Below, in pieces: positions 1-51,883 of a stretch of DNA of 51,883 nucleotides. The translations under genes were made by a program, and so were the position numbers. Location: positions 1-51,883 of the forward strand of contig JAFGDD010000017.1 in NCBI GenBank assembly GCA_016932315.1, given 5' to 3'. Position 1 is the stretch's first letter; each line of letters starts with the position of its first letter. This DNA is from Candidatus Woesearchaeota archaeon (lineage in GTDB: Archaea > Nanobdellota > Nanobdellia > Woesearchaeales > SM23-78). Below the pieces are notes generated by a model. That model did not search any database and was not told the DNA's origin. It was given only the letters and a program-made list of their open reading frames with translations.

Positions 1-118
1 CAAAAAGTCGCCGTAGCAGTCACCAACACAAAAATTTTTGTTTTTTTAAACAAAATTTTTGTTGGACGCTGACGCGGTGGGGGTTGCCCCCTCGGGGTAC
101 CGCGTAGGCGACTTTTTG
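1..118. repeat. Miniature terminal-inverted-repeat element, family 1, left copy
   Basis: The element is bounded by a perfect 12-bp inverted repeat, CAAAAAGTCGCC at 1-12 and its complement at 107-118. Inside are two hairpin arms. The first pairs CCAACA near 22 with TGTTGG near 60 across an AT-rich palindrome. The second pairs ACGCGGT with ACCGCGT around a core GCCCCCTCGGGG at 86-97. No open reading frame fits it. Bases 2-87 recur exactly at 51797-51882, and the same architecture and core recur at 27630-27752 and, inverted, at 41901-42058. It could be a MITE or REP-like element; no transposase is visible in the window. Confidence 0.85.
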
Positions 119-41549: not shown

Positions 41550-42299
41550 ATGAAGGAAATAGCCCGAGGCGCTGAATCTGTAATCTACGATGACAAAGAG
41601 ACGATAATAAAGGACAGGCTGAAGAAGAATTACCGCATTGCAGAGCTTGACGACGAACTTAGAAGGCAGAGGACGAAAAAAGAAGCCAGCCTTTTGCAGA
41701 AGGTCAAAATCCCACACCCCAAACTTATTCATTCTGATGACAAGCAAAAGATAGTCATGGAGAAGATTAAAGGCGAGAAGCTCAGGGAAGTTCTTGACCA
41801 GAAGCCAGAGCTTGCAAGAAGGGTTGGAGAGATTGTTGCTGAGCTTCACAACCAGAACATAATCCACGGAGACCTGACGACGAGCAATATGATTTTGCGG
41901 GAAAAGTCGCCAGTGCCAGCCCGAGGGGCGCAACCCCAGGCACAGCAAAAACTTTGTTTTTGCGTGCCAAAAAGGGACTTTTTGTCACAGCAGCCATCGT
42001 GCAAGTCATTCGCAAATGCTCATGACGTTGCACTAGCTGAAGGCTGCGGCAACTTTTCTAACGAGAATGAAAATAACGACATAGTATTCATCGACTTCGG
42101 CTTGAGCTTCCACTCTGAAAAGGTCGAGGACAAGGCTGTTGATATTCATTTGTTCAAGCAGGCTCTTAACAGCAAGCACTTCAAGGTTTATGATGAAGCA
42201 TTGAAAGCTTTCATGTTTGGCTATAAAAAAGTTAATAAACATGAACAAATAATGCAGAGGCTTAAAGAGGTTGAGCTCAGAGGGAGGTATAAGCACTGA
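41550..42299 (+). CDS. bud32: KEOPS kinase Bud32 with an in-frame repeat insertion
   Basis: RGAESVIY, K21 in IIKDR, E46, IIHGDLTTSN at 104-113 and IDFGLSF at 181-187 are Bud32 motifs. Bud32 is the ATPase/kinase of KEOPS, needed for tRNA t6A. The family length is about 195-200 aa; this one is 249. The excess is residues 118-170, encoded exactly by a hairpin element (41901-42058), between the catalytic loop and the DFG motif. Without it 196 residues remain. No stop interrupts the frame, so the protein may tolerate it as a surface loop. It is coupled (TGATG) to the downstream protease gene. Confidence 0.88.
   Translation: MKEIARGAESVIYDDKETIIKDRLKKNYRIAELDDELRRQRTKKEASLLQKVKIPHPKLIHSDDKQKIVMEKIKGEKLREVLDQKPELARRVGEIVAELHNQNIIHGDLTTSNMILREKSPVPARGAQPQAQQKLCFCVPKRDFLSQQPSCKSFANAHDVALAEGCGNFSNENENNDIVFIDFGLSFHSEKVEDKAVDIHLFKQALNSKHFKVYDEALKAFMFGYKKVNKHEQIMQRLKEVELRGRYKH
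41901..42058 (-). repeat. Family 1 element inserted in frame inside bud32
   Basis: GAAAAGTCGCC at 41901-41911 and GGCAACTTTTC at 42048-42058 form a terminal inverted repeat with one mismatch. The core CCCGAGGGGCGCAACCCC (41920-41937) is the reverse complement of the family-1 core, so the element is inverted relative to the copy at 1-118. Internal stems include GTGCC/GGCAC, GCAAAAA/TTTTTGC, and GCAGCC/GGCTGC enclosing GTGCAA/TTGCAC. It encodes bud32 residues 118-170 without stops. Confidence 0.8.
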
Positions 42300-51796: not shown

Positions 51797-51883
51797 AAAA
51801 AGTCGCCGTAGCAGTCACCAACACAAAAATTTTTGTTTTTTTAAACAAAATTTTTGTTGGACGCTGACGCGGTGGGGGTTGCA
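51797..51883. repeat. Family 1 element, right copy, cut by window end
   Basis: Bases 51797-51882 are identical to 2-87. The next base (A at 51883) differs from the C at 88. Only the left inverted repeat and first arm are present, the rest lying beyond the window. The difference at the last base argues for a second dispersed copy rather than a circular overlap. Confidence 0.8.

What the first reader, a model, noticed from the sequence alone, without database searches (positions are those of the whole stretch)
41901..42058. A palindromic element lies in frame inside the KEOPS kinase gene bud32
Residues 118-170 of Bud32 are encoded by a 158-bp element with a terminal inverted repeat and hairpin arms. 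They fall between the HGDLTTSN catalytic loop and the DFG motif. Removing them leaves 196 aa, the normal family size. No stop or frameshift is present, as with Rickettsia palindromic elements in bacterial genes. An essential enzyme carrying such an insert in an archaeon would be notable, and the insert may form a tolerated surface loop.
Basis: partly seen in the sequence, partly recalled or inferred. Interest (0 to 1): 0.85.

Follow-up and report, generated by a model that had tools for sequence, protein, structure and literature searches.

The report
Mobile DNA palindrome inside archaeal kinase
A small repeated DNA palindrome, present in at least 77 copies in this archaeon's genome and almost always found between genes, sits inside the gene for the widely conserved tRNA-modification kinase Bud32; it reads through in frame as a floppy loop, has been kept in a sister species, and its DNA symmetry is better preserved there than the protein it encodes.

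Summary
Residues 118-170 of Bud32 are encoded by a 156-bp palindromic element (window 41902-42057, plus a 1-bp terminal pair) belonging to a dispersed repeat family: at least 77 copies in this genome, 47 in one congener, few or none in five others. Nearly all copies are intergenic. Only three of 113 mapped copies lie inside genes: bud32 here, bud32 of the sister species at the same site and orientation, and hypF here. All three use the same element frame. Bud32 of five other congeners and of the other order members aligned lacks the insert. AlphaFold2 keeps the kinase fold (pLDDT above 90) and shows the insert as a disordered beta7-beta8 loop.

The element folds as a three-way junction with strong covariation but no excess of G.T over A.C mismatches, so symmetry is kept at DNA level, not RNA level. 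Between the two bud32 genes, silent sites differ at 71-84% in host codons but about 10% in the insert; three base pairs changed on both arms, altering six amino acids. The insert is therefore tolerated DNA, not selected protein. It works like Rickettsia palindromic elements. The mobiliser is unknown: no Y1 or DDE_1 transposase, and no target duplication.

The parts
41550..42299 (+). bud32 (KEOPS kinase) ORF, 249 aa, carrying the insert
   Evidence: Open frame; 30-member Bud32 alignment; fold match to Mj Kae1-Bud32 2vwb/3en9 and KEOPS 8unk
41902..42057 (+). Palindromic repeat element, 156 bp = 111-bp basic unit + 45-bp module; 1 further terminal pair at 41901/42058
   Evidence: Copies in own genome; covariance model R1 81.3 bits
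41902..41911 (+). Left terminal inverted repeat (P1 5' arm) AAAAGTCGCC
42048..42057 (+). Right terminal inverted repeat (P1 3' arm) GGCAACTTTT; one mismatch here, perfect in the sister species
41912..41944 (+). Core hairpin P2/P2a (AGTGCC-AGCCCGAGGGGCGCAACCCCA-GGCACA), the part shared with other palindromic repeats of the order
41944..41988 (+). Extra 45-nt module of two hairpins (15 codons), absent from the sister species' bud32 copy; same module in copies L009, L010(-) and, in a variant form, L014 and L020
41990..42047 (+). P3/P4 arm (CAGCC...GGCTG stem enclosing the GTGCAAGTCAT...ATGACGTTGCAC hairpin)
3..116 (-). Another family copy, at the left end of the contig
   Evidence: 67.7 bits
27632..27750 (-). 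Another, divergent family copy, intergenic
   Evidence: 32.8 bits; context
51798..51883 (-). Truncated family copy at the right end of the contig
   Evidence: 26.2 bits, cut off at the end

Best explanation
Shown: the segment is one copy of a dispersed DNA palindrome family (111-bp basic unit, optional hairpin modules) that is abundant in this archaeon and its sister species. Inferred: in their common ancestor one copy entered bud32 at the short beta7-beta8 turn between the catalytic loop and the DFG motif. Because 111 and 156 bp are multiples of three and one frame of the element is free of stops, the ribosome reads straight through and the enzyme carries a 37-52-residue disordered loop that does not disturb the kinase fold. 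The insert is tolerated, not selected as protein. What is kept is the DNA's base-paired symmetry, by selection on a folded DNA form, by arm-to-arm template correction, or by conversion with intergenic copies. How copies spread is unknown.
For: At least 77 copies in own genome and 47 in the sister species; TIR half-sites 315 against 96 for the reversed pattern. Of 113 mapped copies 105 are intergenic, 5 lie at contig edges and 3 inside genes. Same-site insert in G005, absent in G001-G004, G006 and the other order members aligned; G000 and G005 group together on a Bud32 tree, support 90/84. Second in-frame copy in hypF, in the linker between the YrdC and HypF_C domains; the G006 HypF lacks it. 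AF2: insert pLDDT 40-60, kinase above 90. Structure: 94% of cells paired, 86 double-changed cells against 23 in shuffles; G.T 55, A.C 67. bud32 pair: insert pS 0.105, host pS 0.84/0.71; differences by codon position 8/8/4 against 35/14/94; three coupled base-pair changes altering six amino acids.
Against: No target-site duplication. No Y1 transposase in G000 or G005 and no DDE_1 there, so mobility is inferred from copy dispersal only. Each bud32 copy is closest to intergenic copies of its own genome, so two independent insertions at one site are not strictly excluded. No expression data. The host gene's codons and the element were compared in only one species pair.
Confidence: 0.86

Rival explanations
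1. The insert is a functional, selected domain or loop of Bud32 in this lineage (for example a KEOPS partner contact) that merely happens to be palindromic DNA.
For: Kept open and in frame in two species; same peptide pattern KS-ANA-DVA-AGCG-F in both.
Against: The same peptide appears when intergenic copies are translated. In the insert pN (0.199) exceeds pS (0.105), opposite to the host codons (0.12 against 0.84). The predicted loop is disordered. Absent from five congeners.
Confidence: 0.06
2. The element is a structured RNA gene or RNA regulatory motif whose copies are selected as RNA.
For: Strong covariation and better-than-random folding.
Against: G.T wobble pairs are no commoner than A.C mismatches over 110 copies (55 against 67). 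No Rfam match even at E = 1. Copies lie on both strands relative to their genes.
Confidence: 0.06
3. The element is a recombination site folded as single-stranded DNA, like an integron attC, used by a tyrosine recombinase.
For: DNA-level structure conservation with sequence drift; intergenic placement; archaeal integrons exist, including in Nanoarchaeota (PMC9668308).
Against: Both tyrosine recombinases scored (one from G000, one of the second pair from G005) pass the archaeal XerA cut-off and fall below the integron integrase cut-off. Copies are scattered in tandem, divergent and convergent gaps, not in cassette arrays, and lie inside genes.
Confidence: 0.06
4. The insert is an archaeal intron, removed from the mRNA by the splicing endonuclease.
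For: Located inside a gene; length a multiple of three, so excision would also restore the frame.
Against: Nearly all copies are intergenic. The frame is kept open without splicing in two species. The base of the element is a continuous helix rather than a bulge-helix-bulge (read by eye, no dedicated BHB scan).
Confidence: 0.03

Closest known systems
Rickettsia palindromic elements (RPE) and Wolbachia palindromic elements
   Same: About 105-150 bp palindromic repeats with terminal inverted repeats, intergenic and in frame inside conserved housekeeping genes, tolerated as loops (PMC2229807, PMC10969869)
   Different: Different domain of life and a different three-way-junction anatomy; only 3 of 113 copies lie in genes here, against 19 reported reading frames in the early RPE work; sequence kinship not tested
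[quoted passage not shown]
   Same: Archaeal palindromic repeats with coding potential, the nearest archaeal precedent
   Different: Another phylum; the paper itself is not held, so sequence, length and insertion sites could not be compared
Prokaryotic MITEs (ERIC, RUP, Correia, Sulfolobus MITEs)
   Same: Short, terminal inverted repeats, high copy number, no transposase of their own
   Different: No target-site duplication found; no parent transposon found; internal junction structure with covarying stems
REP/BIME elements mobilised by the Y1 transposase TnpA_REP
   Same: Short intergenic palindromes, foldable as single-stranded DNA
   Different: Longer; no Y1_Tnp gene in G000, G005 or G006

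Membership tests
Protein-coding palindromic repeats (RPE-like, as a functional kind) | Multi-copy palindromic element of about 100-150 bp with terminal inverted repeats | tested here: met
Protein-coding palindromic repeats (RPE-like, as a functional kind) | Same element found both between genes and in frame inside unrelated conserved genes | tested here: met
   bud32 in two species and hypF
Protein-coding palindromic repeats (RPE-like, as a functional kind) | Homologous genes of relatives lack the insert | tested here: met
Rickettsia palindromic elements (as a sequence family) | Sequence similarity to one of the RPE families | not tested
   RPE sequences were not at hand; nothing suggests kinship
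MITE | Terminal inverted repeats | tested here: met
   10-11 bp
MITE | Target-site duplication | tested here: not met
   No enrichment of direct repeats of 3-8 nt at the borders of 109 copies; the bud32 site shows none
MITE | Related autonomous transposon with the same ends | tested here: inconclusive
   No Y1_Tnp or DDE_Tnp_1 in G000 or G005; other transposase families not searched; genome about 91% complete
REP / TnpA_REP system | Y1 (REP-associated) transposase in the genome | tested here: not met
Integron attC site | IntI-type integrase in the genome | tested here: inconclusive
   The recombinases scored are XerA_Arch, below the TIGR02249 cut-off; one was taken from G005 as stand-in for its G000 counterpart
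Structured RNA family | G.U pairs tolerated in preference to A.C | tested here: not met
   55 G.T against 67 A.C in 110 copies
Archaeal bulge-helix-bulge intron | BHB motif at the borders | not tested
   No dedicated scan; the borders form a plain helix by eye

The most novel reading that the evidence does not exclude
The element's DNA symmetry is actively maintained (by selection on a folded single-stranded or cruciform DNA form, or by arm-to-arm template correction) strongly enough to override the reading frame of a conserved enzyme: inside bud32 the two arms change together and alter amino acids on both sides, while the host gene's silent sites have saturated. It belongs to a so far undescribed order-wide set of DPANN palindromic repeats built around one conserved G/C-rich hairpin, with an unknown mobilising or maintaining protein.
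Probability: 0.4. Interest if true: 0.78.

Novelty: new variant of a known kind. Interest (0 to 1): 0.6.

Why it matters
In-frame palindromic inserts in housekeeping genes are best known from Rickettsia and Wolbachia; an archaeal case in a conserved tRNA-modification kinase, kept across a species split, extends the kind to DPANN archaea. The two-species bud32 pair also gives a rare internal control: a reading frame whose silent sites are saturated next to an insert whose DNA symmetry is nearly intact. That makes the question of whether such palindromes are conserved as DNA or as protein directly testable.

Tried and rejected
Rfam gave nothing at gathering or at E = 1. IMG/VR had no exact match to the P4 arm pattern. 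Two further 'inside' calls from the ORF scan, L138 (PPDK) and L125 (HD domain), were rejected because the element lies upstream of the plausible start of the conserved protein. Target-site duplications and a longer family-wide terminal repeat were tested and not found. Syntenic intergenic copies in the two species are only 46-61% identical (flanks of 25 nt included), so shared descent of those is not claimed. An attempt to call the bud32 copies orthologous from the element sequence alone failed: nearest relatives are intergenic copies of the same genome; the shared site, not the sequence, carries that argument. The number of in-gene copies is a lower bound because some weak copies of G000 were not fetched.

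Full report
The observation. The Bud32 ORF at 41550-42299 is open, and codons 118-170 lie between the HGDLTTSN loop and the DFG motif. They carry an 11-nt terminal inverted repeat (91%) and internal hairpins, and the region folds better than every one of 200 shuffles on either strand.

It is a genomic repeat. The 201-bp query hits 30 places in the own genome. Full-length copies with exact borders are easily read off. A covariance model from 16 module-free copies finds at least 77 copies in this genome (G000), 47 in congener G005, four in G006, two in G002 and none in G001, G003 and G004. An independent count of terminal half-sites (315 against 96 for the reversed control) points to roughly 110 copies.

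Anatomy. Basic unit 111 bp: P1 (10-bp terminal repeat), P2 with inner hairpin P2a, and P3 enclosing P4, a three-way junction. In 16 copies 94% of cells pair, 24 of 39 pairs change on both sides, and the covariation score is 0.398 against 0.138 in shuffles and 0.09 or less for slid structures. Extra hairpin modules are inserted in some copies; the bud32 copy carries a 45-nt module that the sister copy lacks. There is no target duplication; one further terminal pair is usual.

DNA, not RNA. Over 110 copies the stems hold 3573 Watson-Crick cells, 55 G.T and 67 A.C. Selection on an RNA would favour G.U on one strand. There is no Rfam match.

Where copies sit. Of 113 mapped copies in G000 and G005, 105 are between genes, 5 at contig edges and 3 inside genes. 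The three are bud32 of G000, bud32 of G005 (L039:1752-1862) and hypF of G000 (L098:1541-1651), where the insert lies between the YrdC domain and the Kae1-like HypF_C domain. All three use the same frame of the element. About 47% of short copies are open in that frame anyway, so openness alone is weak evidence. The HypF of G006 lacks the insert.

History in bud32. Bud32 of G001-G004, G006 and the other order members aligned runs through without the insert; one more distant genome, L061, has an unrelated 16-residue insert at the same turn, which shows that the turn is permissive. On an insert-free tree G000 and G005 are sisters with support 90/84, so one insertion in their ancestor is simplest; two independent insertions are not strictly excluded.

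The insert does not evolve as protein. In host codons pS is 0.84 (before) and 0.71 (after) with pN 0.12; in the 38 shared insert codons pS is 0.105 and pN 0.199, and differences by codon position are 8/8/4 against 35/14/94 elsewhere. Each bud32 copy keeps 37 of 39 pairs; of ten differences at paired sites six form three coupled base-pair changes, which random placement gives with P = 0.007, and all six alter amino acids. Each copy is nearest to intergenic copies of its own genome, so conversion between copies may contribute. Among the closest copies single-arm changes outnumber coupled ones, while coupled changes dominate over all nearest-neighbour pairs (249 against 212); mutation in one arm followed by matching in the other is the inferred order.

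Structure. AlphaFold2 with a 30-sequence alignment gives pLDDT above 90 for most of the kinase and 40-60 for residues 121-170, a coil between beta7 (114-117) and beta8 (178-180). The best fold matches are Kae1-Bud32 and KEOPS structures. Kae1 is present elsewhere in the genome, and no second Bud32 was found.

Mobility. No Y1 transposase in G000, G005 or G006, no DDE_1 in G000 or G005. Two tyrosine recombinases are present in each; the two scored are archaeal XerA, not integron integrases. The mobiliser remains unknown.

Wider family. The core hairpin pattern CAYCCCGNNNGGGGCNNCCCCYG occurs in 15 of 148 genomes sampled across the phylum, all in the window's own order and spread over many families, with no match to the reversed control in any genome. 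In four of these genomes it lies inside other palindromic repeats, several with a different terminal repeat, GCAACAACAATAATGGC. The element is thus probably one branch of an order-wide set.

Known kinds. It works like the Rickettsia and Wolbachia palindromic elements and the coding palindromes of M. jannaschii (PMC2229807, PMC10969869). It meets the functional definition of protein-coding palindromic repeats, but sequence kinship to RPE was not tested, and the MITE criterion of target duplication was tested and not met. I found no description of this family in the held literature, which is not proof of absence.

Noticed in passing
L098:1541-1651 (+), G000 hypF, ORF L098:304-2709: A second in-frame copy of the same element, same strand and frame, in the linker between the YrdC and HypF_C domains of the hydrogenase maturation protein HypF; absent in the G006 HypF.
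   Followed up: yes
L196-L215 (G072, G120, G009, G164): Other families of the same order carry palindromic repeats with a different terminal repeat (GCAACAACAATAATGGC) but the same G/C-rich core hairpin.
   Followed up: partly
window 3-116 and 51798-51883: Both ends of this contig lie in or at copies of the repeat, so the assembly probably broke on the family.
   Followed up: no
L010:1505-1666(-)/1668-1778(+), L102:1558-1674(-)/1677-1777(+), L132:2622-2731(-)/2751-2861(+): Pairs of copies lie head to head within a few to 20 bases of each other, as in BIME-like composite repeats.
   Followed up: no
L024:1513-1819, L029:1445-1645, L020:4820-5021: Some copies carry arrays of several extra hairpins inserted at junctions of the structure, up to about 307 bp in all.
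   Followed up: no
L061 (G018) Bud32: An unrelated insert of about 16 residues (NRKFPSSENQDDFLLF) at the same beta7-beta8 turn of Bud32 in another genome of the order.
   Followed up: no
L112/L141, L119/L136, L103/L154, L113/L143, L032/L145: Several intergenic copies sit between the same neighbouring genes in G000 and G005 although their sequences have diverged widely.
   Followed up: partly
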